Shown: positions 5,782 through 25,456 of the stretch, piece by piece
Numbering within the stretch: position 1 is the stretch's first letter
Layout: each line of letters opens with the position of its first letter
Assembly (NCBI GenBank): GCA_938023735.1
Contig: CALJDK010000036.1
Span: 1 to 64,000 of the forward strand
From: an uncultured Acidimicrobiales bacterium
GTDB taxonomy: Bacteria > Actinomycetota > Acidimicrobiia > Acidimicrobiales > SHLQ01
DNA length: 64,000 nucleotides
Direction of reading: 5' to 3'
Notes under the pieces: generated by a model
Databases searched by the model: none
What the model saw: the letters and a program-made list of their open reading frames with translations, nothing else
Told to the model about the DNA's origin: nothing
Translations under genes and position numbers: made by a program

Positions 5782-6876
5782 TTAGCCAAGGACTGCGGTG
5801 CCGGCGATAGCAACGGGTCCTTGGCCGAATTCCTGGACGACATGGTCGTCGATGCCATCAGCGACCTCGCTCACGAGGGGCTTGAGAGCAAACGGTGCCG
5901 GGCTGTCATCGTCGACTGGCTCAACACTGATCACGACGGTTCCGTCACGGAGATCGGTTGGGAAGTTCACACCACCAGGAGCGTTGACGATGAAGTCCTC
6001 GCCGGGGAAGTTCGGGCCCGATGCGTCGGTGCCACTGAAGCCGTTGAAGTCATCGGCTGCACCGGGGTCGGTGAACCGGCCGGTCGAAACCGGAACTCCA
6101 TCGATGACGGCCCAACCTTCATAGACCCAACCCTCGTTGAGTTCGGGGAGGTCGAGACCTTGTACGGCGCCCCCATCGAGGCCGACGAACCAGACACCCG
6201 ACAACTCGTCATCTTCGACGGCGGTGGTTGGTGTGCCAAGGATGTAGACACCCGAGGCATCAGCAAAGTCGGTGCCGACTGCTGCCGGATGAGCAATGCT
6301 GAGTTCGGCCTGTCCGTCGACAACGTCGCCGGCAAGGATCTTGATTGCTGACGGGGCAGGGTCGGTGTCGTTTGCGGGTTCGATGGATACCACTACCGCT
6401 TCGGCGCGGTCGGTATGAGCTGCTGCAAAGGGATCGTCGATACGTTCGCCGTCAAGATCAACGACGTATCCGTTGGCATCGATGTTGAAGTTTCCGGTGC
6501 TTACCGGCTCGCCATCGACAACAATCCAGCCTTCGTAGTGAACACCGTTGGCGAGCGGCTCAAGGCCCTCGAAGGTGAGCTCGAGCGTGCCTACGGCGTC
6601 ATCCTCCATGGCGTCGTCCTCCATGGCCTCTTCATCCTCCATGGCGTCGTCCTCCATGGCCTCTTCATCCTCCATGGCGTCGTCCTCCATGGCCTCTTCA
6701 TCTTCCATGGCCTCTTCGACGACCTCTGTCTCGGTCTCGGGAGCACCCGAGACTGATGTGCCGCTGTCGGCAGCAACATCGGCTCCGCAAGCAGCGGCAA
6801 GTACACCGATCGACATCAGGAGGGTGGCCAATTTCTTGTTGACCTTGGGGGGTTGTGACTCTTGGTCTGGGCTCAT
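5782..6876 (-). CDS. Lipoprotein with acidic Met-Glu-Asp tandem repeat and two YEGW-containing extracytoplasmic domains
   Basis: Start at internal Met 52 of ORF 5782..7029 (MSPDQESQPPKVNKKLATLLMSIGVLAAACGAD; lipobox LAAAC). Contains (EEAMEDDAMED)n and two related segments 'HYEGWIVVDGEPVSTGNF' and 'VYEGWAVIDGVPVSTGRF'. Confidence 0.8.
   Translation of the reverse strand: MSPDQESQPPKVNKKLATLLMSIGVLAAACGADVAADSGTSVSGAPETETEVVEEAMEDEEAMEDDAMEDEEAMEDDAMEDEEAMEDDAMEDDAVGTLELTFEGLEPLANGVHYEGWIVVDGEPVSTGNFNIDANGYVVDLDGERIDDPFAAAHTDRAEAVVVSIEPANDTDPAPSAIKILAGDVVDGQAELSIAHPAAVGTDFADASGVYILGTPTTAVEDDELSGVWFVGLDGGAVQGLDLPELNEGWVYEGWAVIDGVPVSTGRFTDPGAADDFNGFSGTDASGPNFPGEDFIVNAPGGVNFPTDLRDGTVVISVEPVDDDSPAPFALKPLVSEVADGIDDHVVQEFGQGPVAIAGTAVLG
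6601..6717 (-). repeat. 33-bp in-frame tandem repeat, three perfect copies plus a partial copy, encoding EEAMEDDAMED
   Basis: ATCCTCCATGGCGTCGTCCTCCATGGCCTCTTC at 6601-6633, 6634-6666 and 6667-6699, then a degenerate partial unit. Confidence 0.95.
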
Positions 6877-6989
6877 GGGTTTCTCTTTCGGAATAGCCCG
6901 GGCTCCGTTGCCTGGGCGTTGCAAACCAAACGGCACGCAACGTTCATCCGGTTCCCTAAATACCCAAAAGAAGAAGGGAATCTTTCGAT

Positions 6990-7619
6990 TCAGTCCAGGG
7001 TTTGCTGCGCCAATTCGACCTTGGTCCATGCCCCGAGATACACCACATCTCCCGAGCTCAACGGTGTCGCGACACCCGCTGGAATCACCGTGTCGGAGTC
7101 GCCCAGGTAGGTCCCGTTGGTCGATGACAGATCGGCGATGACATAGCTACCATCGGCCTGACGCTCGAGCATGGCGTGACGGGTCGAGACTGCCGGATCC
7201 CCGGTGATAGCCAAAACATCGATCTCGGGAAACACGCCGCGGCTTTCGCTTCGACGCCCCATGAGCGCCTTTTGCAGGGAAAGATCTACGGTGACCGCGG
7301 AGGGAACCGGATCGGGAAAATCCAGCTGACCCTCGGCCGACATGCGATCGAAGTAGGCCCGGTCGACACTGATAACCAACTGCCACCCAGAGGCACTGTT
7401 ATCTGGAGCGGCACTGTTATCAGCGGAACCGGAATCAGCACCGTCAGAATGAGCACCGTCAGAATCAGCACTGCGCAGCGCCGCTTCGGGACCCGCGACC
7501 GTAGGGTCCGGGTCGCTCAGCGCACTTGGCATGCTGCCGGCAAGGAAGTCATAGCCGCAGTTCTCGCAGAAGACGGCCGACTCAGCATGAGGGTCGGCGC
7601 AGTTGGGACACGTTGCCAT
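6990..7619 (-). CDS. Zinc-ribbon plus FHA-domain protein
   Basis: Start at MATCPNC (7619). N-terminal 'CPNCADPHAESAVFCENCG'; C-terminal FHA pattern 'AVSTRHAMLERQADGSYVIADLSSTNGTYLG'. Confidence 0.9.
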   Translation of the reverse strand: MATCPNCADPHAESAVFCENCGYDFLAGSMPSALSDPDPTVAGPEAALRSADSDGAHSDGADSGSADNSAAPDNSASGWQLVISVDRAYFDRMSAEGQLDFPDPVPSAVTVDLSLQKALMGRRSESRGVFPEIDVLAITGDPAVSTRHAMLERQADGSYVIADLSSTNGTYLGDSDTVIPAGVATPLSSGDVVYLGAWTKVELAQQTLD

Positions 7620-7620
7620 A

Positions 7621-8916
7621 TCAGGACCCTTTGTTGACTCGAACGGTTCGGGTCGATCGCACATCGAGCGCCATCGTGTCGGCGTCGTCGACCTTCTTTT
7701 TCAAACGAACGGTGCCGGATTTCGGGTCGTCGACCTCGACAACCTTCTCCAACAGCTTCACCGTGTCGCCGTTGCCGGCTTCGTGCGCCAATTGCACCGC
7801 CCGGCCAAGTTTCACGGTGGCCGTTGCCCCATCGCCGGAATCTCGGGCTGCCAACCCCTCGGCGATTGCATCAGCCAATTCGGCTTGGCCCGTATAGTGA
7901 GCGACCTCGCGATTTATTCGGGTAGAGAGCGCCTCGTCGTTGGTCCAGATTGCTCGCACCAGCGCGCTCGGCTGTTCGACATCGTCGATGGTGAGCATGA
8001 CTCGGGCACCAAGTCGTTCGTCGCCGACGTTGCCTACCGGGATACGAATGCGCAGGTGGTAATCGCGCGATTCGTCGCCCGCCCAAGCTCCCAATGGGTA
8101 ATCGTTGGTAAGCGCCTTCACCGGCATTGCCTTCGAGGTGAGATCGTCAATGTTGGGAGCTACCTGTTTGATGAACTCCACCTGCGAGCCTTGTGGGGTC
8201 CACAACCGAAGCGAGACCGATCCAACCTCTTTCCCCATGGCCGCTTGCGTGAGTGCTCGGAACTCGGCCTCCATGTCGGCGGGGCTGGGAATGATGTCGA
8301 CCGTACCCAAAAGGGCGTTGGCGATGCGACGAAGCTCGTCGATGTTCCAATCGGTTCCGAGACCCCGAGCATCACACTGAAACAGACCGCTGCATTGGGC
8401 AATGGCGTTGTTAAGCGCCCGGTCGCTTTCGCTTTGGTTCTTGCCGTCGGTAAGCAGGATGCAGTGGTTGATGGAGTTGGGTACCCCATTGAAGATTCCG
8501 GCGGCCGCAGTGAGCCAGGTGCCGATGGCGGTACCGCCCTTGGCCCGAACTCTCGACACGACACCCTTGGCGGCTTCGCGGGTTTGACCGTCGGCCCGAG
8601 CTACGGCGCCGGCTTCCTGCGGGTACAGCGCGTACGCGCCGTCGACGCCGGCCACGATGGCAAACAGCGTGCCGTCGCTGAGCGTGTCGATGGCGGCCAT
8701 GGTGGCCTCACGAGCCGCCCGCATTTTGAGGCCGCCGTCTTCGTTCATCGACCCCGAACAGTCGATCACGATGACCTCGACCCGTTCTTGCCCGGCCGGC
8801 GGCGCTGCCGCACCTCCAGACCCGCCCGAAGCGGTCACCGTGACCACGGCGTCGACAACATCGGCGCCTTCGTGGAGATACTCGTTCTGAAAAACTTCGG
8901 CCTTAAAGTCAGCCAC
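7621..8916 (-). CDS. vWA (von Willebrand factor A) domain protein
   Basis: Probable GTG start at 8916 (VADFKAEVFQNEYL). MIDAS motif 'VIDCSGSMNED'; 'CILLTDGKNQSES'. Overlaps the PP2C gene by 8 nt. Confidence 0.9.
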   Translation of the reverse strand: MADFKAEVFQNEYLHEGADVVDAVVTVTASGGSGGAAAPPAGQERVEVIVIDCSGSMNEDGGLKMRAAREATMAAIDTLSDGTLFAIVAGVDGAYALYPQEAGAVARADGQTREAAKGVVSRVRAKGGTAIGTWLTAAAGIFNGVPNSINHCILLTDGKNQSESDRALNNAIAQCSGLFQCDARGLGTDWNIDELRRIANALLGTVDIIPSPADMEAEFRALTQAAMGKEVGSVSLRLWTPQGSQVEFIKQVAPNIDDLTSKAMPVKALTNDYPLGAWAGDESRDYHLRIRIPVGNVGDERLGARVMLTIDDVEQPSALVRAIWTNDEALSTRINREVAHYTGQAELADAIAEGLAARDSGDGATATVKLGRAVQLAHEAGNGDTVKLLEKVVEVDDPKSGTVRLKKKVDDADTMALDVRSTRTVRVNKGS

Positions 8917-10018
8917 GGGCGCCGTCCTGTTCTCTTTCTGGGTCTTGTTCGGGGTCGGGGTCTTGTTCTGGGTCCGAATCGGGTTCGGATTCTGGGTCGG
9001 GTTGGGTTTCTTCGGATTCTGGGTGAGCAGCAGGGTTACCCGAGTGATCGGCAAGTGCGACGGTGGTGTTGTCGTGGCCACCTGACTCCAACGCAAAGCC
9101 CACCAAGTTTTGCGCAAGCGCCAGCAACGTATCGCCTTGATGTGCTGCCACCTGGGCGGTCATTGCCTCGTCGGTATCGGCATAATTCCACAATCCGTCG
9201 CTGCACAACAGCACAAATCCAGCACCCCCCGTATGGGTGGCGATGCCGGGTTCAAGATCGAGGGCATCGTCGCCCAACCAGCGAGTGATGGTATGGGCTC
9301 GGCGATCGGCGTTGGCCTCCTCGGCGGTCATCAACCCATCGGCAACCTGTTCGCGCGCCCACGAATGATCGATGGTCAGTTGGGTGACCTCGCCCTGCTC
9401 GTCGATCCAGTAGGCACGGCTGTCGCCCAACCATCCAATAGTTACGTCGACGCCCGACTCGCTCACCGAGGTGATCGATGCAACGAACGTGCACGATGGC
9501 GACCCTTTGGAGCTGGCGCCCTTTGCTACCGGTACCTCAAGCGCCGCTGCTTGCCCCGCAGCCACTGCGGCCTGCATGGCCGCGACGTGGTCGGACTCGC
9601 CGTTCTCGAGTGCGGCAACGAGGACACCGGTGGCAGCAGTAGTTGCCTGAAACGATGCCTGTTCTGGATTGTCGGTGGACGACACGCCATCGCACACCAC
9701 CAGCACCGAACTGGTACCTACCTGCGCGACCGCTCCGTGATCTTCGTTGCGATGGTGTCGCTTGCCGCGATCGGTAACCACCACCGTCCAACCCTGGTCG
9801 TCCTCGAGATGATCGCGGGCCTCGGGCTGTTTATGACCGCAGCTGCCGCAGTAGCCGTCGGCGGCGATATCGGTACTGGGTGCTGCGCAGCTGACACATG
9901 GGTCGCTCGACGCCGTCGACAGCGCTGAGTCGGCGGTGCCATCGAGGTCGGCGCCGCACGCTTCGCACCACTCTCCACCGCTCGCCGGCTCGGCGCAGGC
10001 CGGACACACTTGTGCCAT
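8909..10018 (-). CDS. PP2C-family Ser/Thr protein phosphatase with two N-terminal zinc ribbons and acidic C-terminal tail
   Basis: 'CPACAEPASGGEWCEACG', 'CVSCAAPSTDIAADGYCGSCG'; PP2C motifs 'NEDHGAV', 'VVCDGVSSTDNP', 'GWLGDSRAYWI', 'LLCSDGLWNYAD', 'HDNTTVALA'. Confidence 0.92.
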   Translation of the reverse strand: MAQVCPACAEPASGGEWCEACGADLDGTADSALSTASSDPCVSCAAPSTDIAADGYCGSCGHKQPEARDHLEDDQGWTVVVTDRGKRHHRNEDHGAVAQVGTSSVLVVCDGVSSTDNPEQASFQATTAATGVLVAALENGESDHVAAMQAAVAAGQAAALEVPVAKGASSKGSPSCTFVASITSVSESGVDVTIGWLGDSRAYWIDEQGEVTQLTIDHSWAREQVADGLMTAEEANADRRAHTITRWLGDDALDLEPGIATHTGGAGFVLLCSDGLWNYADTDEAMTAQVAAHQGDTLLALAQNLVGFALESGGHDNTTVALADHSGNPAAHPESEETQPDPESEPDSDPEQDPDPEQDPEREQDGARG

Positions 10019-12501
10019 CAGACCAGGCTCCGGGGCCGTACCAGGTTGGCCTTGTCGACGAGTTCGAACCGCTCGGCGTCGGTTGGAGCCATACGTGCCT
10101 GGTCGCGATACACCGCCTCAAGCTTGGCGCGCAGGTCGAGTTCGGTAAGTCCACCACCAAACAACTTCTTTGACGCGTCGGGTGCAAGCGCACCGGTACC
10201 CATGGCCGCCAAGGCCCGTTCGAGTACTTCGGCGGCGAGCCGCGATCGTTCGGCGGCGTCGATCTGCAACTGGTCGATGGTTTGGGCCGCGGCTTCGAGT
10301 TCGGATGACGACGGTGCGTCGCTACTGCGAACCCCGGCCAAGGTGCGGGCTGACTCGACCTGAGCACCAGCAAAGGCCGCCGAGCTAGGAGGTACCCGTC
10401 GATACGCGGCAACGGCGCCGGCGCGGTCGCCCTCTGCGGCCCGGCACCGGGCCAAGCCAAAGGGCGCGGAGACAAAAGTCGAATCCACCGAGGCCGCAAG
10501 CTCATACAGGGAGGCGGCCCGCCCGTACTCGCCCGCCCGTTCGGCGGCGATAGCCACCGCCACCTTGGGGGCAACCTCGCCCGGGATCTCGGTCCAGACG
10601 TTGCTCAGTGCCTCGGCCGCCCCGGTGGGGTCATCGTTCTCAAGCTTGAGAAGTCCTCGGTACCAGTTGATTCGCCAATCCCAGGGGTCGGCTGCTTCGA
10701 TGCTGTCGAGGGTCGAGGTGATATGCCCCGAACCAGCGCCGCCACCTTGCAACAGCGCTTGCACAGTGCGAAGTCGAACCTCACGCGTGTCAGGGAGTGA
10801 TCCGTCTTTCAACCCCGCACTTATCACTTCGAGTGCCCGAGCGGGTTCGACATCTTCGATGCCTAAGAGGAACGAAGCGGCAGGGTCGGCCGGGTCGACC
10901 TTTGGATGCGGAAGAACTCGCCAATCGGGTGTATCGACCAGAGAGTTATCTTCGGCGTCGATAAGTAGCGTTGCCAACTGATCGCCCTCGAAGAGTTCGC
11001 TGGGAACCGGGCGCGGGCTTCGTTGGGTGACCGCCACAATCTCGCGGAGTACGCCAGTGAGTTGCGCTGCGGTTTCGTCGGCGTCTTGAAAACGGTCGTC
11101 GGGGTGGTGGGCGGTGGCCTTGAGGAGGAACCGGTAGAGCGACTCCCACTCGGCGAACAGCGGCACCTCAGCCGGACCGGGAAGTGTGTGCTCGAAGGTG
11201 CCCTTGTGGAACACAAAGTCAAGAATCATCACGGCCAGCGTTCGACCCACCGTGAAGATGTCGGACGACACCGAGGGACCCATGGTGGCGATTTCGGGCG
11301 CCTGAAATCCTCGGGTTCCGAAGATGGCAGCATCGTCGTCGTCGATCTGCATCACGCCGCCCACATCGATGAGCTTCACACCGTCGCCAACACTCATGAC
11401 GTTGGCCGGCTTGAGATCGTTGTAGACCAGCCCCGACTCGTGGAGGTACCCAAGTGCGGGAAGAATGCCCAAGATGTAGGCGATGGCGTCGGTGACAGGT
11501 AGAGGGTTGGGTACTCCGCCGTTTGCCTTGCGTCGGTCTTTCAGCTTCGAGTTGAGCGACTCGCCACCGACGTACTCCATGACGATGTAGCCAGCACCAG
11601 CATGGGTGACGAAGTTGTAGATGTTGACGATGCTTCCGTGTTCGATGCGCGCAAGAAACTGGCGCTCGGCAACCGCCGATGCCGCGGCATCTTCGTCGTC
11701 GGAGTTGAGAAGCCCCTTCAGTACGACCCACCGGTCGGAGACGGCTTTGTCCTTGCCGAGGTAGATCCACCCCATACCGCCGTGAGCGAGCGGGCCAAGA
11801 ATCTCGTACTGCCCGGCCACCAGATCGCCCGCAGCCAACGATGGTGCGTTGGTAGTGAAATCAAACGGGGTCCGGCAGTTTCCACAGAAACCCTGCACTC
11901 GGCCGGAGCGATTGTCAGATGAGCGACCCACCTCGTTCCCACAGGTTGTACACACCCGCTTCTCTTCGGGCACAACACCCAGAACGCTCTGAATCTTCTC
12001 GGCCGACATGAGCGCCGCTGCCGGGTCGCCCTCAGGGGTCGGCGGCACCGTAACCAGGCCGAGACCGAGCCGTTCGCGAGCGATTCCGGTTCGGCGGGTG
12101 CTGGCAGTTCGGCGGGTCGATGTGGGGTTGGTGCGCCGCGACGAGGTGCCCGGCGCGGTCGGCGCAGCAAGCGAAGCGGCACTAGCAGCACTGGCGGCAC
12201 CAGCTGAGCCGCTCGAAGCGGTCGACATTGGACCGTGTCCAGCAAGCCCGCACGTATTGCAGTAGCCGTCGGCCTCGACTGTGCCGCCGCACCCAGCCTG
12301 GGAACAGGCAGTCCCCGCCGCGACGGGTGCAACCGAAGGTGCCGAAACCCTTGCTGCAGGAGCGACAGTCTGAGCATTGGACGGAGCAGCGGCTACGGCC
12401 GGTGCGGCCGCGCTACTGGGTGCTTTGGCGCCGCACGTATCGCAGTAGCCATCGCTTGCGTAGGAGCCGGTACAGCCGGCGGTGAGACTACATGAACTCA
12501 T
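10018..12501 (-). CDS. pknG: PknG-type Ser/Thr protein kinase: zinc ribbons, rubredoxin-like, kinase and TPR
   Basis: Rubredoxin-like 'CTTCGNEVGRSSDNRSGRVQGFCGNC'; kinase 'GQYEILGPLAHGGMGWIYLGKDKAVSDRWVVLKGLL', 'VYNDLKPANVM', 'LIDVGGV' (PknG-like divergent HRD/DFG); C-terminal TPR-like region; two additional N-terminal 'DGYCxTCG' ribbons. Confidence 0.9.
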   Translation of the reverse strand: MSSCSLTAGCTGSYASDGYCDTCGAKAPSSAAAPAVAAAPSNAQTVAPAARVSAPSVAPVAAGTACSQAGCGGTVEADGYCNTCGLAGHGPMSTASSGSAGAASAASAASLAAPTAPGTSSRRTNPTSTRRTASTRRTGIARERLGLGLVTVPPTPEGDPAAALMSAEKIQSVLGVVPEEKRVCTTCGNEVGRSSDNRSGRVQGFCGNCRTPFDFTTNAPSLAAGDLVAGQYEILGPLAHGGMGWIYLGKDKAVSDRWVVLKGLLNSDDEDAAASAVAERQFLARIEHGSIVNIYNFVTHAGAGYIVMEYVGGESLNSKLKDRRKANGGVPNPLPVTDAIAYILGILPALGYLHESGLVYNDLKPANVMSVGDGVKLIDVGGVMQIDDDDAAIFGTRGFQAPEIATMGPSVSSDIFTVGRTLAVMILDFVFHKGTFEHTLPGPAEVPLFAEWESLYRFLLKATAHHPDDRFQDADETAAQLTGVLREIVAVTQRSPRPVPSELFEGDQLATLLIDAEDNSLVDTPDWRVLPHPKVDPADPAASFLLGIEDVEPARALEVISAGLKDGSLPDTREVRLRTVQALLQGGGAGSGHITSTLDSIEAADPWDWRINWYRGLLKLENDDPTGAAEALSNVWTEIPGEVAPKVAVAIAAERAGEYGRAASLYELAASVDSTFVSAPFGLARCRAAEGDRAGAVAAYRRVPPSSAAFAGAQVESARTLAGVRSSDAPSSSELEAAAQTIDQLQIDAAERSRLAAEVLERALAAMGTGALAPDASKKLFGGGLTELDLRAKLEAVYRDQARMAPTDAERFELVDKANLVRPRSLV

Positions 12502-13802
12502 GAAGCTGCTCCTGGGGACTCGATGGGCTTGCCGGGCAAACGCATAGCGTTCCCGAATCCGGCTACCAGCATGTTGGCCCGTTCAAGGTCGGTCGGTGAA
12601 GTAAATAACTCGTTGTGGGCTTCGTCGTGCAGGTCCGAAAGCGCAGGATCCTCGGCCCGGCCGAGCGCCGCTGCCTTGGCCCAATAGGCCGCCAGAAGCC
12701 CGCGTAACTCGTCGCGTTCGCGTAGCGGCGCCGAATTGATGGAGTACGCCCTCGAGAGCTGCTCGCGCAGCGCCACAACCTTGGCCATCCACTCGTCGAG
12801 CAGTTGGCGCTTCTGCTGCCAGTCGCCACTACCCGCCCGTAGTTCGTCGGCCCGAGCTGCGAGACCGTTGTCGCCGTCGATGATGGCAACGTCGGGGGTA
12901 CGAATGAGGCCCTGCACGTCGACGATCTTGGCGGTGGACTGCGTGTGTGCGGTCGCGGCGCGGTTGCGGAGCATTCGAAGCTCGGCCAGGTGGGTCTCGG
13001 ACTCAGCGATATCGCCATCGAGCTGGTCATAACCCCGAGCGATGTCGGCCATCTGATGTGTGGCATCAGCGACCAGCGTGTCGAGATCGCTGGCGAAGTC
13101 CCGACTCAGCGAGATGGGGTCTTGCGCCAGCGCTGACTTCACGTCTCGGAGTCGAGCCTGAAGCACGGTAAGCGTCGGATCGGAGATTCCGAGCCGGCTT
13201 GCATCGGCCTTCAACCGGTCGAGGGTTGTTTCGGCACCCGAGGTTCGCGGTACCACCTCGGTCCACACCTGATCGACCGTCGCCACCGCGTCGCGTATTG
13301 GCTCATAGACCAATCGCATTTCGCTGAGCAGCTCTTCGATGGTGCCGTACACATCGGCGCTGCCAACGTCGAGCAGGTCTCGTTGGATCACGGTTCGCTC
13401 ATCGACCTGCAACACCACGGTGTCGCCAGTGAGCAGTTCGGTGAGTTGTTGGCGACGCTCACTACTCATGCGGCCGTCGTCACGGATACCTCGGGCGTCG
13501 TTAAGGGTGCGTTGCAGCTGCCCAAGCCACCGCCAAAGTTCGGGGCTTTTCTCCATCGCTGGCCCAACCGTGGCGAGGGTGGTACCTCGAAGCCCACCGG
13601 CGCTCAGAATCTTGAACGTTGGATGCTCGTCAAGCTCGAGAAGATTGGCCGCAATCCGCGCTTCGGCAGCGCCGTAGCGAGTGAGAAGTTCGTCGATCTG
13701 TTCGGTTTGCAGCAACCGGGTTTCCCTTTGGGATTCGTGGTTCCGAACAGCGTACAGCCCGCTCAGTAGCGGTGTCTTTTTCTGTCCGCGTCGGGAAGAC
13801 AA
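12498..13802 (-). CDS. Predicted coiled-coil protein, first gene of the kinase/phosphatase module
   Basis: 434-aa ORF, charged and helix-rich, no recognisable catalytic motif or TM segment; stop overlaps kinase start (ATGA). Confidence 0.8.
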   Translation of the reverse strand: MSSRRGQKKTPLLSGLYAVRNHESQRETRLLQTEQIDELLTRYGAAEARIAANLLELDEHPTFKILSAGGLRGTTLATVGPAMEKSPELWRWLGQLQRTLNDARGIRDDGRMSSERRQQLTELLTGDTVVLQVDERTVIQRDLLDVGSADVYGTIEELLSEMRLVYEPIRDAVATVDQVWTEVVPRTSGAETTLDRLKADASRLGISDPTLTVLQARLRDVKSALAQDPISLSRDFASDLDTLVADATHQMADIARGYDQLDGDIAESETHLAELRMLRNRAATAHTQSTAKIVDVQGLIRTPDVAIIDGDNGLAARADELRAGSGDWQQKRQLLDEWMAKVVALREQLSRAYSINSAPLRERDELRGLLAAYWAKAAALGRAEDPALSDLHDEAHNELFTSPTDLERANMLVAGFGNAMRLPGKPIESPGAAS

Positions 13803-13868: not shown

Positions 13869-14123
13869 ATGTGTCGAAACATCACCACCCTGCGAGGGCT
13901 CGAACCCACCGCTACCGACGACGAAATCGTTGCTGCTGCTCAGCAGTATTGCCGCAAGGTAAGCGGTGTGCAGAAGACCTCGGCCAACACCGAAGAGGCC
14001 TTCGAGCGCGCTGTTGCTTTGGTAGCCGCTGCCACCACCGATCTGCTCCGAGATCTCCCGCCGCGAAAGCAGCCACCCAAAACCGAACCTCCGCTTCGCC
14101 GACTGGCTCGCGCCAAAAGCTAG
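13869..14123 (+). CDS. DUF2277-family protein
   Basis: 84 aa, MCRNITTLRGLEPTATDDEIVAAAQQYCRKVSGVQKTSANTEEAFERAV, as in the DUF2277 family. Confidence 0.85.
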   Translation: MCRNITTLRGLEPTATDDEIVAAAQQYCRKVSGVQKTSANTEEAFERAVALVAAATTDLLRDLPPRKQPPKTEPPLRRLARAKS

Positions 14124-15640: not shown

Positions 15641-16570
15641 CTAGCTTTTACCCCAGCGGCCGCCGAAGCCTCGCTTGGGAGTTTCGGCCGGCGGTGGCGG
15701 GAGTTGCGACGGGTCGAAGTTCTCGGGCGGCGGCGGTAGGTGTTCGTATGAGGGATTGGCCGGCGGCAACGCTCCCGAGAATCGCTCGCGGCTTTCGGCG
15801 GTGATGACGTTGCCGGAGTTGGCCGGATTCTGAGAGTCGGGCCCGAACTCGCTGAAACCGGTCTCGCGAAGCGGCGCGCTGCGGAAGAACTCGTCGGCGT
15901 GCTTTGCCAGGTTCCGAACCATCGTGAAGTTGGCGCCGCCGCCAATGACTGCGCCGATACCAAAGGGAAGAAGCCGCCCAACCGTGGCGATGCCGCGGCG
16001 GGTGCCGTACTTCGTAAGTACATGGGTTCCGAGCGAACCATTGACCCGCTCGATCACCTCTAGGGGCATCTTCATGCCTTGGACACCCGTGGGGTTCATG
16101 TTCATCTTGTCGACCAAGGCGGTGAATTCGGTGGCCGCTTCATCGCCGAACGCCAGAATCGAGAGCACCCAGGCTCGCCGCTGCTCAGGGCTGGCATTGG
16201 TGTGACCGTGGATGGCCGCAATGGTCATGATGAGATCGGTGGAACGGAGGGCGAGCCACGCAACATCGGCCGTTAGCCAACTGGCGGCCGCCGCCGTACC
16301 AAGGCCGGGGGTTGCTGCCGCAGCACCGGTTGCGGCGCCAGCGCTGGTGAGTTCTTTCTGGAACGAGTTGTAGAGCTCGGCGAGTCGCTGATCGCGGGTT
16401 CCCTGCGTTTTGGCGGCCCGGTCGAGCGCCCGCTGCCATCGCATCGTCACCGCTTTGTCAACACCCTCGACCATCGCCTTCCCAAGCGCGTCGAGCACGG
16501 GTTGGGGGATCATGTCGGGGCTGAGGGCCTTCTTTGCGGCCTTCTTGGCTATGCGTTTACGAATTGCCAT
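15641..16570 (-). CDS. EcsC-family protein
   Basis: Start at MAIRKRIAKKA (16570) inside ORF 15641..16990. EcsC-like 'GAATGAAAATPGLGTAAAASWLTADVAWLALRSTDLIMTIAAIHG'. Confidence 0.75.
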   Translation of the reverse strand: MAIRKRIAKKAAKKALSPDMIPQPVLDALGKAMVEGVDKAVTMRWQRALDRAAKTQGTRDQRLAELYNSFQKELTSAGAATGAAAATPGLGTAAAASWLTADVAWLALRSTDLIMTIAAIHGHTNASPEQRRAWVLSILAFGDEAATEFTALVDKMNMNPTGVQGMKMPLEVIERVNGSLGTHVLTKYGTRRGIATVGRLLPFGIGAVIGGGANFTMVRNLAKHADEFFRSAPLRETGFSEFGPDSQNPANSGNVITAESRERFSGALPPANPSYEHLPPPPENFDPSQLPPPPAETPKRGFGGRWGKS

Positions 16571-16623
16571 GTCCACTACGCTAACGGCGTCGCGAGAGGG
16601 CTTATTCCTCGCGACGGTTGCGG

Positions 16624-17346
16624 TTAGCCGGAGAGTGCTCCGAGAAGCCCACCGGAGCCACCGCCACCAGCTGGAGTGGGGCGACCCTCGGACGGCTGCA
16701 CAAGAATGAACCCCTGTCCTTGGAAATCCATCTGGAACGTTTCGCCAGAACCACCGCGCGCCATCGACTTGATGCCGCCGGTGGTATCGGTCTTGAGGTT
16801 CATCTGTACGCCCGAGCTCCACATGACTACGGCCTGCGGATCGCCGAAGGTGTTGCCGCCAGCTACGTCGAGCATGACCGGGGGCCCGTCGGTGGTGATA
16901 GCCACGTAGCCGCTTCCGCTGAGGGTGACGTTGAAGAGTCCGCCAGCCATGGCACCGGCCATGCCGCCGCCCAAGCTTTTGATGTCCCACTCGATACTGC
17001 TGGAGAAGGCGAGCACGTTGTCGCCGTTCACCGAGATCTGATCGTTTTCGAGGTACAGGACCTGGATATCATGGGCTTCGTTGGCGAAGAACACCTCGCC
17101 CTGGCCATCGACATGCATCATGTTGACGCCTTCGCCGGTGGTTACCTTCTTGAGCAGTTTGCCCATGCCGCCTGAACCCTTGTTTTCGAAGGTCACTGCG
17201 CCTTGGTAGGCCACCATCGACCCGGTTGCGGCTTCGACCGGACCGTGGGCCAGAGAAACACGCAGCAGCTTCTTGTTCTGCAATTGAAACTGCTGTTCAC
17301 CTGCAGGAATCTCTCCGTATTGAGCAAGTTCGCTGTGGATTGGCAT
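16624..17346 (-). CDS. AIM24-family protein
   Basis: 'ATGSMVAYQGAVTFENKGSGGMGKLLKK', 'GEVFFANEAHDIQVLYLENDQISVNGDNVLAFSSSIEWDIK', 'GSGYVAITTDGPPVMLDV': beta-rich AIM24 pattern. Confidence 0.88.
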   Translation of the reverse strand: MPIHSELAQYGEIPAGEQQFQLQNKKLLRVSLAHGPVEAATGSMVAYQGAVTFENKGSGGMGKLLKKVTTGEGVNMMHVDGQGEVFFANEAHDIQVLYLENDQISVNGDNVLAFSSSIEWDIKSLGGGMAGAMAGGLFNVTLSGSGYVAITTDGPPVMLDVAGGNTFGDPQAVVMWSSGVQMNLKTDTTGGIKSMARGGSGETFQMDFQGQGFILVQPSEGRPTPAGGGGSGGLLGALSG

Positions 17347-17429
17347 GTTCGTCTCCGCTCTCCGCCACCCGGCGTGGCGACTATCCGTACCTTAATCGGC
17401 ACGTGCCGCCCGGCGCTCGAAGCCGCTCG

Positions 17430-20400
17430 TTAATCGGCAGGAGATTGGGGTGGAGGAGATGAGGGTGGAGGAGGAGGTGGTGGAGGCGGTGAGTCGTTCG
17501 ATCCCTTGGCTGGGCGCCGATTGCTCGTTCGTTCGCGGTAGATCGCCTGGCGGGCGGCCCGGCTTACCTCGTCGGCTTTGATGAGCTGACGAAGAGTTTC
17601 GTCGAACAGCGCCATTGCTTCGGCCGCATCGGGGCCGCGGTTCTCACTCAGCACACGGAGTTGCTCGCTGATACCGCTCACCGCTCCGGCCACCCGAACC
17701 ATCGGATCATCGTCGGAGCCACCCATCAGCTTCACCCGACGGAACGAGTTCTTGATTTCGTCCCAGCGTTCGGTGTCGTCGTCGCTGAGTACGCCACGAA
17801 GTTCGCGCAGCTTGAGCAGGTTGGCTTCGGCGCCGGTGGTGAGGGTTTGGGCTTCGCCGACGTAGTGATCGTCGAGCAGCGCCTCGAGCTCGTCGTCGTT
17901 CATAACCGGCAGCACTTTTTCCGCCAACCGGTTCATGTTTCGATACGAACCCTGCAGCTGGAAGCGTGGTTCGGTGCGGAACTCGTCCTCCTGCGATGCC
18001 GAGCTGATGTAGGTCTGATTAACCGCCAGCAACACTTGCTGCACCTGGATAAGTCGTCGGAACGTGGCGACGAGCTCGTCGATCTCGACGGCCGAGTAGG
18101 GGTGGGTGAGGTCGTCAGGCGACACCGCATCGCCCTGCGCCATAGCGATGAGCTTGAGGGTGTCGGCGGGGTCACGGGTAGTGAGTGCCGCAAGAACGGG
18201 GTTCGAGGTGAGCGAGTTCTCGAGGTAGCTCAACGCGAATTGCTGATCATTTCCGGTGAGCACATCGCCAAGGTTGTAGGTATCGGCACGGTTGGCGAGC
18301 ATGTCGGGAATCTGGAACCGCTCGCCCGACTCGGTGTAGGGGTTACCGGCCATCACCACGGCGAAGCGCTTGCCGCGAAGGTCATAGGTTCGGGTGCGTC
18401 CGTTCCACACACCCTCCATGCGGCGCTGTGCATCGGACATCGAGATGAACTTCTGTAAAAGCTCGGGGTTCGTGTGCTGAATATCGTCGAGGTAGAGCAG
18501 CACGTTGCTGCCCATCTCCAACGCGAAGTTGATCTTGTCGACCTCTTGCGCCGCCGTGGCGTTGGGAGCCTCGGACGGGTCGAGCGAGTCAACACCGTGG
18601 CCGAGCGCCGGGCCGTTGACTTTCACAAACACCATGCCCAACCGGTTGGCCACGTATTCCATGAGCGTGGTCTTGCCGTAGCCAGGCGGCGAGATGAGCA
18701 GCAGCAGACCCATCTGGTCGGTGCGGCCGCCTTCGATGGTGCCGAGCTGCTTGGCCAGGTTGTCGCCGATGAAGGGCAGGTAGACCTGATCGATCAGCTG
18801 GTTGCGCACGAACGCGCTCATCACCTTGGGAGTGAACTCGTCGAGGCGAAGCCGGTGTCGGGTATTGGCGAGGAGCTCGTGGCGGGCCGCTTGGTAGGCC
18901 CGGAAACCGGGCACCACAGTGCGGCGGAAGACGTCGCCTTCGGCCAGCAGTTGGTCGTACCGGAATGACAGCGTCTGGTTGACGATGCGACCGTGCTGGC
19001 TCAGCAGGCCGTCTACCTCGCAGCGAAGATCGACGGCGCCGGCTTGATGAGGAAGGTCGCCGGCGACGAGCAGCGCTACCGCCTCGGGAACGTAGGGAAG
19101 AGCCTCGGGTTGCTGGGCCTCGGCAAAGGCGGTGAACCAGGCGGCGAGCAGCCGAGCCCTGTCGCTCAGGCTCTCGAGTTCGGCGAGCGAGCTACCGACC
19201 GTGTCGTGATGCAGCGCCAGTGCGTCGCGAAGGTTTGACGCAGCGCTGCTCACTACGAAGGCCAGCGGCTCTTCGGCAAGTTCTTCGAACAGATATGCGG
19301 CAACCGCAACCAGGTCGCCGTCGACACCGAGCGCGTCGACCACTGCGGGATTCTGTTCAGCAAACACGGTGATGCGCTCGGTAAGGGCGCTGATGAAGTC
19401 GGCGATGGCTGGTGATTTTGCAAAGGTCGAACGAAGTCGACCCAGGCTCTTGCCACTGGCCAACAACTTTCGTTGATCATCGTCGTCGACGCCGTGGGCC
19501 CAGAACACCTGCGCCATGGCCCGGGTGTGAGGCTCAAAGCGAAGCAGCGCTACTTCGTCCCATCGGTTCACCAGCACTCCGAGGATGAGCGCGGCGTCGT
19601 GGTCGTGCACACCACGGTCGTAGCCCTCGTCGACCCGACCCTCGGCCGCTGATCGAACAAGTGCTTCGAGACCAGTTGGCGAACCAGCGGCCGCACGCAG
19701 CTCGGCCATGGAGATCTCGCCTTCGCCATCTGCTGCGTTAGCAAGCAGCGCGGTGGCAAGAAACTCGATGCGACTGAAATCGCTTCGCTCGGAAACCAGG
19801 CTTTGGTCCCAGAATGGTCGAAGCGCATCGAGGTTGTAGTCGTCGACCCCGGCACCGGCGAGCGCTTCGGCCGAAACAACTTCCCGGAAGTCGGTTCCCG
19901 TGATCACCACATGGAGTTGGCCATCGATAACGGCAGTGGTCAGCTCGAGTCGCTGCGAATCGACACTGAACCGGTGGCGGCCCAGACGAATGACCTGACC
20001 GCCATCTTCGAAGATGTCGGTGCGGTCGCGAAGTGATCGGGCGGCTTCTTCTTTGGCGGTTTCAAGGGTTCGCAGTACTTCGTCGGCGCGTACCTGCTCG
20101 TCGAGACCGCGCAGGTCCTCGGCAATCGAACGCACCTTGGCGACCAGCGGATCGCTCACAAAGAAGGCATTGATTTCGTCCGGTGATTCGAAGCCCTCGA
20201 TCCGCCGGTTCAGGCTGACGAGAATTCGGTCGGACGCATCGACTAGTCGACGGGCGGCGCGCTGACGGTCGTCGATAAGCGACTGCTTGCGCGACGAGAA
20301 CGCCTCGTAGATATCTTCCCGTTTGGTGGCGATCTGTTCGAGATAGTCGTCGGATTCACCGAACCGGCTCTCGAGATTCTCCAGCTGCACGAGCAGAGTT

Positions 20401-22661
20401 CCAAGAGCTGCGTCGGCCCGTTCGGGAGTGGTGGATCGAGAAAGTTCGGCGGTAACCGATTGCGAGAAGAGCCCAAACTCAACGCCAAACGCTGCGCTGC
20501 TTTCCGCATCGTTGAGCGTGCGGCGCTGGTTCTCGGCGACCGCTCGGGTGCGGTTGAGTGAGCCCATCACATCGGACACTCGTTCGAAGATGCTGGTTCG
20601 GACGGTGGCGTCGTCGATATCGAGACCGCCGACCACCTCGGTGAGCAGATCGAGACCGCCGCCGATGTCGTCAAGCGACTCGAGGTGCGGTTGCAGGTCG
20701 GTGACCTTCTCAGTCGACTCGATCGTGGTGGTTAGTGCGGCAACATCGGTGTGGAACCCTTCGAACGCTGCATCGTCGGCGAGGAACTCGACCGCCTGAC
20801 CCGACTGGCTGTCGAACGCCTCGGTCAGCGTGCTGTCGAGCTCGTCGAGCGCAGCATTGTCTACATAGCGAACATCGCGCAGCGTGAGTACATGACCCTG
20901 CTGGCGACGAAGTTGCTGGAGGGCGTCGACAAACTCTCGCGTGCTGCTGGGACGCTTGGCACGAAGTCCGTCGACCAACGTGTTGATCTCGGCACGCGAC
21001 TCGTCGACCACATCGATGGCGGTTGCCTTGAGCGACTCGGCCTTATCGAACTCGTCGATGATGAGCTCGGAGGTGGCACGGATCTCGCCGAGTGGTTCGG
21101 CGAGGTCGCCGGCCTTGTCGTCGGCGAGCCAGGGGTGCGCATCGAGCACCCGGACGGTGGTGGTGGACAGGGCTTCAAACACCGCTGCCGACGGCTCGAC
21201 GTCGGCGACGAGGCGTTTGATGTTGAGCGACTCACTTACGCCGCGCACAGCTTCGGCGTTGCCGATGCGCTCGAGAAATCCGTCGCCCAACGGCTGCCGG
21301 GCGTGAAAGTCGTCGCTGACAAACGGCGTGGCCCAGATCTGCATGGGGTGCACCCGCGTGGGTTCGCCGTCGTCGCGGAACACCACCAGCGTTCCGTCCT
21401 CGAAGATGCTGTAGCCGTGGCAGTTGAGAGGCGGGGCGACCTCGCGACGGATGAGGTTGTAGCTCAACAGGATGGTGCGGCCCTCGGAGCGTTGATGAAA
21501 CGCGTACAGCACATCCTCGCCGTTCGGCGACCTGCGCTCGGCCTTGAACTCCATCGACGAGGTATCGAGGTCGAACACCTTCGTGTCGCCTTCGCGCAAG
21601 TAGTAGCCGCCGGGAAAGATCAACCCGTGGTCTTCGGGCAGGATCTGGCAGGACTGCCCGATCGCGTCCACTCGAAGAGCGGTGCGGTTGAACAGATTGA
21701 CGACGAAGTACCGGTCGTGGTCTTCCAGATACGGCCGCACCTTCAACAGGACGAGGTCGCCGACCACGGCGTAGTCGATAGATGTGTCGTCGACCGATTG
21801 GTCGGCATTGTCCACCGACTCGGTGAGAACCACGGCACCGGTTTCGGTGTTGTCTTCGAGGCGAAGTTCGAGTTTCCCGTTCTCGGGATACACAAACACG
21901 CTGTCGGCGATGTTTACGTGCGGCTCGGGACCACCCGAGTGGTTTGCCCTGGTGCTGGCAACCCATTCAAACCCGAACTGCGGCGGGTAGCCGTGGTCGC
22001 GTTCGCCACGGTTGTCGAGGTAGCGAGCAGCGCCGTCGGGCGAGACCTCCCAGCGAAACACCCGGATATCGCTAATCGAGTTACCGATCTGAAACGCGGC
22101 GAGCAACCGACCTTCGGTGCGTCGGAGCTGGAGGAGCTTGTTGTCTTTGTAGTAGCGGGTGAGCTCGGCGAAATCACTGAGGAACGATGGGTCGTGCAAC
22201 CAGGCGCTGGATGCACCGTCGACGTCCTCGGAGACTGGCGACAGCGAGAAGGCAGTCTCGGCGCCGGCCTCTCCCTGGGCTCCCCTGGCTAGGCGGTGCA
22301 GGCTGAATACATCGTCGATGGTGGTCTCGGACTTCAGCCCCATGAACACGTTGTAGCCAAAGAGCAGCTGGTCGCCGACCGACACGATGTCGCGCGCAAC
22401 ACAGTTGTTTTCGGTACGAATCCGTTCGCTGCCGACCAGCTCGAACCGGCTGGTGCCGAACGTTTCGAGGCGTTCGTCGTTGAGGCGCGATGCTCGACGG
22501 CCCAGCTCGTCTGCGTGTTCGAGCAGGCGTGACCGCAGAAGTTCGTAGGTTCCGGCGCCGGCCGTATCGGCAACGGCGGAGGCCGACTCTGCTGAGCCAG
22601 CAGCAGCAGCAGTGTCGGCGGGCTCAGCGCCGGAGGGAAACTCGGGTTCGGTGGTCGTCAC
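17430..22661 (-). CDS. Giant (1743 aa) AAA ATPase of the 'DNA repair ATPase' type, with polyproline C-terminus
   Basis: N-terminal DUF3686-like region; P-loop 'SPPGYGKTTLMEY', 'NVLLYLDDIQHTNPELLQKFISMSDAQRRMEGVWNG', 'FAVVMAGNPYTESGERFQIPDMLANRADTY'. Ends PPPPPPPPPSSPPPQSPAD. Confidence 0.88.
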   Translation of the reverse strand: MTTTEPEFPSGAEPADTAAAAGSAESASAVADTAGAGTYELLRSRLLEHADELGRRASRLNDERLETFGTSRFELVGSERIRTENNCVARDIVSVGDQLLFGYNVFMGLKSETTIDDVFSLHRLARGAQGEAGAETAFSLSPVSEDVDGASSAWLHDPSFLSDFAELTRYYKDNKLLQLRRTEGRLLAAFQIGNSISDIRVFRWEVSPDGAARYLDNRGERDHGYPPQFGFEWVASTRANHSGGPEPHVNIADSVFVYPENGKLELRLEDNTETGAVVLTESVDNADQSVDDTSIDYAVVGDLVLLKVRPYLEDHDRYFVVNLFNRTALRVDAIGQSCQILPEDHGLIFPGGYYLREGDTKVFDLDTSSMEFKAERRSPNGEDVLYAFHQRSEGRTILLSYNLIRREVAPPLNCHGYSIFEDGTLVVFRDDGEPTRVHPMQIWATPFVSDDFHARQPLGDGFLERIGNAEAVRGVSESLNIKRLVADVEPSAAVFEALSTTTVRVLDAHPWLADDKAGDLAEPLGEIRATSELIIDEFDKAESLKATAIDVVDESRAEINTLVDGLRAKRPSSTREFVDALQQLRRQQGHVLTLRDVRYVDNAALDELDSTLTEAFDSQSGQAVEFLADDAAFEGFHTDVAALTTTIESTEKVTDLQPHLESLDDIGGGLDLLTEVVGGLDIDDATVRTSIFERVSDVMGSLNRTRAVAENQRRTLNDAESSAAFGVEFGLFSQSVTAELSRSTTPERADAALGTLLVQLENLESRFGESDDYLEQIATKREDIYEAFSSRKQSLIDDRQRAARRLVDASDRILVSLNRRIEGFESPDEINAFFVSDPLVAKVRSIAEDLRGLDEQVRADEVLRTLETAKEEAARSLRDRTDIFEDGGQVIRLGRHRFSVDSQRLELTTAVIDGQLHVVITGTDFREVVSAEALAGAGVDDYNLDALRPFWDQSLVSERSDFSRIEFLATALLANAADGEGEISMAELRAAAGSPTGLEALVRSAAEGRVDEGYDRGVHDHDAALILGVLVNRWDEVALLRFEPHTRAMAQVFWAHGVDDDDQRKLLASGKSLGRLRSTFAKSPAIADFISALTERITVFAEQNPAVVDALGVDGDLVAVAAYLFEELAEEPLAFVVSSAASNLRDALALHHDTVGSSLAELESLSDRARLLAAWFTAFAEAQQPEALPYVPEAVALLVAGDLPHQAGAVDLRCEVDGLLSQHGRIVNQTLSFRYDQLLAEGDVFRRTVVPGFRAYQAARHELLANTRHRLRLDEFTPKVMSAFVRNQLIDQVYLPFIGDNLAKQLGTIEGGRTDQMGLLLLISPPGYGKTTLMEYVANRLGMVFVKVNGPALGHGVDSLDPSEAPNATAAQEVDKINFALEMGSNVLLYLDDIQHTNPELLQKFISMSDAQRRMEGVWNGRTRTYDLRGKRFAVVMAGNPYTESGERFQIPDMLANRADTYNLGDVLTGNDQQFALSYLENSLTSNPVLAALTTRDPADTLKLIAMAQGDAVSPDDLTHPYSAVEIDELVATFRRLIQVQQVLLAVNQTYISSASQEDEFRTEPRFQLQGSYRNMNRLAEKVLPVMNDDELEALLDDHYVGEAQTLTTGAEANLLKLRELRGVLSDDDTERWDEIKNSFRRVKLMGGSDDDPMVRVAGAVSGISEQLRVLSENRGPDAAEAMALFDETLRQLIKADEVSRAARQAIYRERTSNRRPAKGSNDSPPPPPPPPPSSPPPQSPAD

Positions 22662-22697
22662 GGGAGCGACTTGTCAGGAGTGCTTGCGGCGGCCCGA

Positions 22698-24734: not shown

Positions 24735-24789
24735 GGGAACTACTCGCTTTCTGTGGGCAATTGCCCGGTGTGGCTCGAAGAGCCTGGTG

Positions 24790-24836
24790 TGGGGGTTGGG
24801 AAGAGTGTGGGGGTTAGGAAGGGGGTAGGGGTTGGG
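24790..24836 (+). other. G-rich tract with G-quadruplex potential between yqiJ-like and flotillin genes
   Basis: GGGGGTTGGGAAGAGTGTGGGGGTTAGGAAGGGGGTAGGGGTTGGG: more than four runs of three or more G, short loops, TTGGG/TTAGG-like units. Confidence 0.75.
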
Positions 24837-24838
24837 AT

Positions 24839-25456
24839 CTAGCCGAGGTCGTCGGTATCGGGGGACACGAGGTAGGTGTCGGCCGAGCTGTCACGGCCGA
24901 AAATGAGGGCCTGATCGCCGGCGGTGAGGTCGTTCTCGACGTTGCAACGAACCTGCACGAGCAGCGTGCCGCCCGCCGGATCGGCCACTTCGGCCTGACC
25001 GAACACGTCGGTGACTTTGAGGGTGGTGATGACACAGAGTTGGCCAGCCAGGTCGCCTCGGCTGCGACCGGCACCGGCGGCGAAGACTTTGCCGACCGGG
25101 CGAGAAACGACACTGGCGGCGAGGACGCCCACCACCAGGGAAACGACGATAACCACCACGCCAACGATGATGAGCAGCGTGTCGTTGCGGTCGCCGATGA
25201 TGCTCATCAGCAGGAAACTGGCGAACCAAGAGAAAAGCGAAACCAGGGTGGCAGTGAGCGCAATCGGTAGCCCGGCAAGCCCAAGGTTGGAGAACAGGTT
25301 GCCACCCATGTCGGCGTCGATCTCGAAGCCGGCCTCGGCGCCAAAGCCAAGAAGCGTCGTGAGCGCAAAGAACAGTAGCGATACTGCCAGAGCCACGGTA
25401 AAGATGACCGTCGGGAATGCAATCGCCACATCGACGAAATCTTCCACGTTCCTCAC
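24839..25456 (-). CDS. YqiJ/NfeD-like membrane protein with C-terminal OB-fold
   Basis: Several TM helices then 'GRSRGDLAGQLCVITTLKVTDVFGQAEVADPAGGTLLVQVRC'. Immediately upstream of flotillin, like yqiJ-yqiK. Confidence 0.8.
   Translation of the reverse strand: MRNVEDFVDVAIAFPTVIFTVALAVSLLFFALTTLLGFGAEAGFEIDADMGGNLFSNLGLAGLPIALTATLVSLFSWFASFLLMSIIGDRNDTLLIIVGVVVIVVSLVVGVLAASVVSRPVGKVFAAGAGRSRGDLAGQLCVITTLKVTDVFGQAEVADPAGGTLLVQVRCNVENDLTAGDQALIFGRDSSADTYLVSPDTDDLG

What the first reader, a model, noticed from the sequence alone, without database searches (positions are those of the whole stretch)
6990..13802. Translationally coupled kinase/phosphatase/vWA/FHA module with shared zinc ribbons
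Five minus-strand genes are packed with -4, -1, -8 and +1 nt junctions: coiled-coil protein, PknG-type kinase, PP2C phosphatase, vWA protein, FHA protein. Kinase and phosphatase carry near-identical modules (kinase 'CTGSYASDGYCDTCG' and 'CGGTVEADGYCNTCG'; phosphatase 'CAAPSTDIAADGYCGSCG'); the FHA protein begins with a related ribbon 'CPNCADPHAESAVFCENCG'. Writer, eraser, phospho-reader and MIDAS scaffold in one coupled unit suggests a stoichiometric phospho-signalling complex held together by ribbons. vWA/PP2C/kinase triads (TerY-P type) are a known theme in Ter stress systems, but pairing with a PknG-type kinase and a coiled-coil lead gene may be a distinct version.
Basis: partly seen in the sequence, partly recalled or inferred. 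Interest (0 to 1): 0.72.

Follow-up and report, generated by a model that had tools for sequence, protein, structure and literature searches.

The report
Extended PknG kinase signalling operon
The five genes are the inner-cell half of a widespread actinobacterial nutrient-sensing pathway built around the kinase PknG (known from the tuberculosis bacterium), here with a phosphatase, a vWA protein, a phosphopeptide reader and an unknown helical protein that the textbook three-gene version lacks.

Summary
In detail: five minus-strand genes with -4/-1/-8/+1 junctions encode a helical protein (CC), PknG (rubredoxin-kinase-TPR), PP2C, vWA and FHA, with ribbons where stated. It is not a TerY-P system: TerD is absent from the genome and no TerY_C domain was found. 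It is an extended PknG operon conserved across Actinomycetota. With vWA as bait, 55 of 55 fully flanked loci keep CC-PknG-PP2C-vWA-FHA in order. In a sample of 398 phylum genomes, all 23 with the vWA protein carry it beside a PknG; the 20 PknG genomes without it all fall in one family, inferred to be Mycobacteriaceae. Most loci add GlnX-GlnH, PknG's known amino-acid receptor. In Acidimicrobiia GlnX instead sits beside a PotD-like (polyamine-type) binding protein; the window's genome has two unlinked GlnX-GlnH pairs. The phosphatase's two ribbons differ: the first is FHA-type (83/84 loci), the second kinase-type (84/84), suggesting it bridges kinase and reader. CC matches no known family or solved fold. 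Likely function: relaying periplasmic nutrient signals to a phospho-switch on FHA targets such as GarA. Family placement is strong; the complex and its targets are inferred. Held papers describe only pknG-glnX-glnH.

The parts
12498..13802 (-). CC: helical lead protein, 434 aa (start TTG 13802 or GTG 13748); no known family
   Evidence: present in all 55 fully flanked loci
10018..12501 (-). PknG-type Ser/Thr kinase, 827 aa
12430..12492 (-). kinase zinc ribbon 1 (CSLTAGCTGSYASDGYCDTCG)
   Evidence: sequence; homologues
12247..12306 (-). kinase zinc ribbon 2 (CSQAGCGGTVEADGYCNTCG)
   Evidence: sequence
11854..12078 (-). PknG rubredoxin domain
   Evidence: PF16919
11218..11805 (-). kinase catalytic domain (YNDLKPANV loop)
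   Evidence: PF00069
10027..10917 (-). PknG TPR domain
   Evidence: PF16918
8909..10018 (-). PP2C phosphatase, 369 aa; catalytic motifs RNEDHG, CDGVSS, SDGLWNY and GGHDN present
9953..10006 (-). PP2C zinc ribbon 1, FHA-type (CPACAEPASGGEWCEACG)
   Evidence: sequence; class test
9836..9898 (-). PP2C zinc ribbon 2, kinase-type (CVSCAAPSTDIAADGYCGSCG)
   Evidence: sequence; class test
7621..8916 (-). vWA protein, 431 aa, intact MIDAS (DCSGSM, GTAIG, TDG) and VWA_3_C domain
7636..7659 (-). conserved vWA C-terminal tail RSTRTVRV (S421, T422, T424 and R426 invariant in the alignment); candidate phosphosite, inferred
6990..7619 (-). FHA protein, 209 aa, with N-terminal zinc ribbon
7554..7610 (-). FHA-protein zinc ribbon (CPNCADPHAESAVFCENCG)
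   Evidence: sequence
7032..7262 (-). FHA domain with canonical GRR, STRH and STNG motifs
   Evidence: PF00498

Best explanation
The five genes are the cytosolic signal-processing half of an extended PknG pathway. A periplasmic binding protein (GlnH-type in this genome, encoded elsewhere) senses a nutrient and acts on the membrane receptor GlnX, which activates PknG through its TPR domain, possibly with CC as adaptor. PknG phosphorylates FHA-type proteins (the operon's own and/or GarA) and the operon PP2C reverses this. The vWA protein probably serves as a peptide-binding scaffold. The ribbons probably hold the kinase, phosphatase and FHA protein together, with PP2C in the middle because it carries one ribbon of each class. 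Shown here: family membership, conserved gene order, co-occurrence with GlnX and ribbon classes. From published work on relatives: GlnH-GlnX-PknG-GarA/OdhI signalling. Inferred: the complex, CC's adaptor role, the vWA role and which FHA protein is the target.
For: PknG_rubred + kinase + PknG_TPR. Order CC-PknG-PP2C-vWA-FHA in 55/55 fully flanked loci found with vWA as bait. In 398 phylum genomes the vWA gene occurs in 23, all with a PknG match within about 3 kb. GlnX lies in the same locus in 52 of 55, with GlnH in 40 and a PotD-like SBP in 11. In the window's family, 13 of the 14 genomes with PknG have GlnX and 4 of the 5 without PknG lack it. The window genome has two GlnX genes, each followed by a GlnH homologue; for the one searched the best PDB hit is M. 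tuberculosis GlnH (E=3e-58). GarA/OdhI homologues with an N-terminal ribbon and a conserved Thr occur in the family. Phosphatase ribbon 1 is FHA-class in 83/84 and ribbon 2 kinase-class in 84/84; with clades held out 41/42 and 42/42. Published: GlnH-GlnX activates PknG, which phosphorylates GarA/OdhI (PMC6069109, PMC9769921); TPR proposed to bind GlnX (PMC8546545).
Against: No direct evidence of a complex, kinase activity or substrates. In this genome GlnX/GlnH are unlinked to the operon, so their coupling to it is inferred. Mycobacterial PknG works without an operon CC, PP2C, vWA or FHA gene and without the ribbons, so these parts are not essential to the pathway in general. G001 has 4.4 kb between PP2C and vWA and L052 has 0.9 kb, so tight coupling is not universal. 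The FHA-class ribbon is close to generic double zinc ribbons; GarA ribbons score about equally for both classes or nearer the FHA class. Regulation of 2-oxoglutarate metabolism was not tested in this lineage.
Confidence: 0.62

Rival explanations
1. A TerY-P type stress module (vWA/PP2C/kinase triad) that recruited a PknG-like kinase.
For: Same three domain classes with zinc ribbons; an AIM24/EcsC/DUF3686/flotillin-like gene group lies just upstream in the window.
Against: No TerD anywhere in the genome; vWA matches VWA_3/VWA_3_C with no TerY_C hit; the module travels with GlnX/GlnH.
Confidence: 0.06
2. The operon is co-inherited and co-expressed, but the proteins act separately: PknG on GarA, PP2C on other substrates, and vWA/FHA in another process. 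Ribbons are autonomous zinc-binding modules, not a shared assembly code.
For: Mycobacteriaceae-type PknG functions without the partners; FHA-class ribbons are generic; the perfect ribbon/vWA association (40 versus 11, none discordant) rests on only about two independent changes (sign test p=0.5).
Against: Order never broken in 55 loci; vWA never found without PknG; consistent two-class ribbon pattern in the phosphatase.
Confidence: 0.25
3. A defence or conflict system resembling the kinase/PP2C/vWA associations of NTPase conflict systems.
For: PADLOC kinase profiles match the kinase domain; kinase/PP2C/vWA sets are reported beside GTPase conflict systems (PMC7159879).
Against: The PADLOC hits are to the kinase domain generally; near-universal order and linkage to a nutrient receptor are unlike patchy defence islands; no effector domain found.
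Confidence: 0.04

Closest known systems
GlnH-GlnX-PknG-GarA/OdhI pathway (Mycobacterium, Corynebacterium)
   Same: PknG rubredoxin-kinase-TPR architecture (as in Mycobacterium); GlnX and GlnH homologues in the genome; GarA-type FHA protein in the genome
   Different: Four extra operon genes (CC, PP2C, vWA, FHA), extra N-terminal ribbons on the kinase, receptor genes unlinked here and often PotD-type in relatives
TerY-P triad of Ter stress systems (from general knowledge; original paper not held)
   Same: Kinase + PP2C + vWA, zinc ribbons
   Different: No TerD, no TerY_C, PknG-type kinase with TPR, FHA and CC added, nutrient receptor association
Stp1/PstP-type PP2C phosphatases
   Same: Catalytic PP2C fold (NF033484 E=2e-30)
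   Different: Below that family's curated cutoff; carries a double zinc ribbon and sits in the kinase operon

Membership tests
PknG pathway (GlnH-GlnX-PknG-GarA) | Kinase with PknG rubredoxin and PknG TPR domains | tested here: met
   PF16919, PF00069 and PF16918, all above cutoff
PknG pathway (GlnH-GlnX-PknG-GarA) | GlnX receptor homologue in the genome | tested here: met
   Two copies, E=4.5e-94 and 1.3e-91, with a model built without G000 sequences
PknG pathway (GlnH-GlnX-PknG-GarA) | GlnH beside GlnX | tested here: met
   Next to both GlnX copies; PDB best hit M. tuberculosis GlnH
PknG pathway (GlnH-GlnX-PknG-GarA) | pknG in one operon with glnX and glnH (typical, treated here as not essential) | tested here: not met
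   Receptor genes on other contigs in G000; met in Streptomyces and most other relatives
PknG pathway (GlnH-GlnX-PknG-GarA) | GarA/OdhI substrate with N-terminal phospho-Thr | tested here: inconclusive
   FHA homologue E=5.6e-44, below the NCBIfam cutoff; conserved Thr in the N-terminus; phosphorylation not testable
TerY-P triad / Ter system | TerY-type vWA with TerY_C domain | tested here: not met
   Only VWA and VWA_3_C hits
TerY-P triad / Ter system | TerD-family protein | tested here: not met
   No PF02342 in a genome about 91% complete
TerY-P triad / Ter system | Kinase + PP2C + vWA encoded together | tested here: met

The most novel reading that the evidence does not exclude
The well-studied three-gene PknG system of mycobacteria is a stripped-down form of an ancestral seven-part signalling assembly (receptor, binding protein, CC, kinase, phosphatase, vWA, reader). 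Its writer, eraser and reader are zipped together by two classes of zinc ribbon, and its receptor is interchangeable, in Acidimicrobiia sensing polyamines instead of acidic amino acids.
Probability: 0.3. Interest if true: 0.72.

Novelty: new variant of a known kind. Interest (0 to 1): 0.5.

Why it matters
PknG is a much-studied kinase and drug target of M. tuberculosis, and how it is switched on, off and coupled to its receptor is still open. The actinobacteria outside the mycobacterial family examined here nearly all keep its likely partners (a dedicated phosphatase, a reader, a vWA protein and an unknown helical protein) next to it, giving testable candidates that can be studied in harmless Streptomyces. 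The exchange of the binding protein suggests that one kinase core is wired to different nutrients.

Tried and rejected
Ter/TerY-P membership: rejected. Defence system: kinase-domain PADLOC hits only. CC as a known coiled-coil family or solved fold: no Pfam family for the window protein and only scattered weak hits among relatives, PDB sequence hits only generic coiled coils, best Foldseek hit EzrA at E=0.46. Loss versus gain of the module in Mycobacteriaceae: the kinase tree cannot decide (AU p=0.53); only the species distribution suggests loss. Ribbon/vWA association as statistical proof: perfect (40/11/0) but about two independent changes. An earlier run listed three discordant kinases, but its motif anchor skipped many sequences and cut N-termini. 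A PSSM run that let rubredoxin cysteines into the kinase class was repeated without them (outside Streptomyces-type loci only 8 had a detected kinase ribbon with that stricter filter). A phylum search with the kinase alignment failed.

Full report
What is there. On the minus strand, 13802 to 6990, five genes overlap or abut: CC (13802-12498), PknG (12501-10018), PP2C (10018-8909), vWA (8916-7621) and FHA (7619-6990) (junction DNA). Pfam places the kinase in the PknG family by its rubredoxin, kinase and TPR domains, and recognises PP2C, vWA and FHA; CC matches nothing. Catalytic and ligand motifs are intact by inspection: kinase YNDLKPAN, PP2C RNEDHG/CDG/SDG/GGHDN, vWA DCSGSM/GTAIG/TDG, FHA GRR/STRH/STNG. 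No sigma-70-like promoter above chance was found inside the unit, which is weak evidence.

How conserved it is. In the window's family 14 of 19 genomes carry PknG. Counting the window, 12 of these have all five genes in the same order; the other two are cut by contig ends. Two of the 12 have gaps: G001 has 4.4 kb and L052 0.9 kb between PP2C and vWA. Using the vWA protein as independent bait across GTDB representatives gave at least 587 relatives, of which the best 80 were kept. Of 55 loci with enough flank, 54 read exactly CC-PknG-PP2C-vWA-FHA and the 55th has the same five plus another kinase nearby. Named hosts include Acidimicrobiales, Solirubrobacteraceae, Streptomyces, Kribbella, Cellulomonas, Saccharothrix and Kibdelosporangium. 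In Kribbella, Cellulomonas and L059 the CC slot holds a protein of like size but only weak similarity (E about 1e-5 to 1e-8). In an even sample of 398 phylum genomes, 43 have PknG and 23 have the vWA protein; all 23 are among the 43, with the vWA gene within about 3 kb of a PknG match. The 20 PknG genomes without it all belong to one family (f47), which I infer to be Mycobacteriaceae from very high PknG_TPR scores. The search scored only a few candidates per genome, so prevalence is a lower bound.

The receptor. Published work shows that GlnH senses Asp/Glu and, through GlnX, activates PknG, which phosphorylates GarA/OdhI (PMC6069109, PMC9769921); the TPR domain is proposed to bind GlnX (PMC8546545). 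GlnX homologues occur in 52 of the 55 loci, with GlnH in 40. In Acidimicrobiia GlnX is divergent from CC (or downstream of FHA in L147) and is followed by an SBP_bac_8/PotD-like protein and a PLP decarboxylase. That protein's nearest solved relatives are mostly spermidine/putrescine-binding proteins, and residues that I recall as polyamine contacts in PotD (two Trp, Asp, Glu, Tyr) are kept or conservatively changed in the alignment; a polyamine ligand is therefore an inference. The window's genome and two same-genus relatives lack GlnX at the locus. G000 instead has two GlnX-GlnH pairs elsewhere, beside an aldehyde dehydrogenase and an Ldh2-like gene (names of these neighbours read from sequence), while a fourth member of the genus (G004) keeps the linked PotD-type receptor. 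The cytosolic core is thus constant while the receptor is exchanged or moved. GlnX ends in a conserved R-x2-EY tail in 12 of 13 aligned proteins (EF in the other), a possible docking site.

The ribbons. Module-linked kinases carry one or two N-terminal ribbons; the Mycobacteriaceae-type and one other unlinked PknG do not. Among 51 kinases ribbon and vWA linkage agree without exception (40 both, 11 neither), and four further vWA-linked paralogues also have ribbon-like cysteines by eye. The tree implies about two independent changes, so this is not statistically significant. The phosphatase has two ribbons of different classes: ribbon 1 is closer to the FHA ribbon in 83/84 loci and ribbon 2 closer to the kinase ribbon in 84/84. 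Training on other taxa and testing on Streptomyces-type loci gave 41/42 and 42/42; the reverse test had only six loci (5/6 each). The FHA class is close to generic double zinc ribbons, so the kinase-PP2C link is the more specific one.

CC. AlphaFold2 with a 29-row alignment gives an almost entirely helical model (pLDDT 90, pTM 0.70). It has no known family and no significant fold match. Its constant place before PknG makes an adaptor role plausible, not shown.

Targets. The genome encodes a GarA/OdhI-like FHA protein with an N-terminal ribbon followed by a conserved Thr. Whether PknG acts on it, on the operon FHA protein or on the conserved vWA tail (RSTRTVRV) is open.

History. Species distribution (Acidimicrobiia, Solirubrobacteraceae, several Actinomycetes groups) suggests that the extended operon is old and was reduced in Mycobacteriaceae, but the kinase tree does not decide this (AU p=0.53) and horizontal transfer is not excluded.

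Comparison with the literature. The three PknG papers read describe only pknG-glnX-glnH; the terms phosphatase and von Willebrand do not occur in the main text of PMC6069109 or PMC8546545, and the OdhI phosphatase named in PMC9769921 is Ppp. Searches for PknG with vWA found no such description. Subscription papers, including the original Ter system paper, were not searchable, so priority cannot be claimed.

Verdict. A real, highly conserved extension of a known pathway, ordinary in kind but with a little-described set of partners; interest 0.5.

Noticed in passing
window 15641-25456, minus strand: A run of EcsC (15641-16585), AIM24 (16624-17346), a 1743-aa DUF3686/AAA ATPase (17430-22661), a flotillin-like protein (22698-24734) and a small NfeD-like membrane protein (24839-25456) lies upstream of the module, separated by an amidase gene; it looks like a membrane-stress cluster. 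Flotillin and NfeD are read from sequence; Pfam gave no hit for the flotillin-like protein.
   Followed up: no
window 5782-7029, minus strand: A lipoprotein-like gene with acidic EEAMEDDAMED repeats and a below-cutoff anti-sigma-factor match lies directly downstream of the FHA gene.
   Followed up: no
window 13869-14123, plus strand: A small ORF (MCRNITTLRGLEPTATDDEI...) divergent from CC resembles the DUF2277 family (recalled, not tested); relatives have GlnX in this place.
   Followed up: no
window 57401-60883, minus strand: A 1160-aa protein with an N-terminal zinc ribbon followed by what reads as a nucleotide cyclase, an ATPase and a TPR-like region.
   Followed up: no
L075-L078, L061: Second PknG-like paralogues in Streptomyces-type genomes and in G395 sit beside a vWA gene, without PP2C or FHA matches, and carry ribbon-like cysteines.
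   Followed up: partly
G315:C25:47538-50563: One genome of the Streptomyces-type family has fragmentary vWA and PknG matches side by side, as if the module is decaying or misassembled.
   Followed up: no
L120, L121, L122: GlnX-GlnH pairs of the window's genus are linked to an aldehyde dehydrogenase-like and an Ldh2-like gene and a putative secreted protein gene, in duplicated loci.
   Followed up: partly
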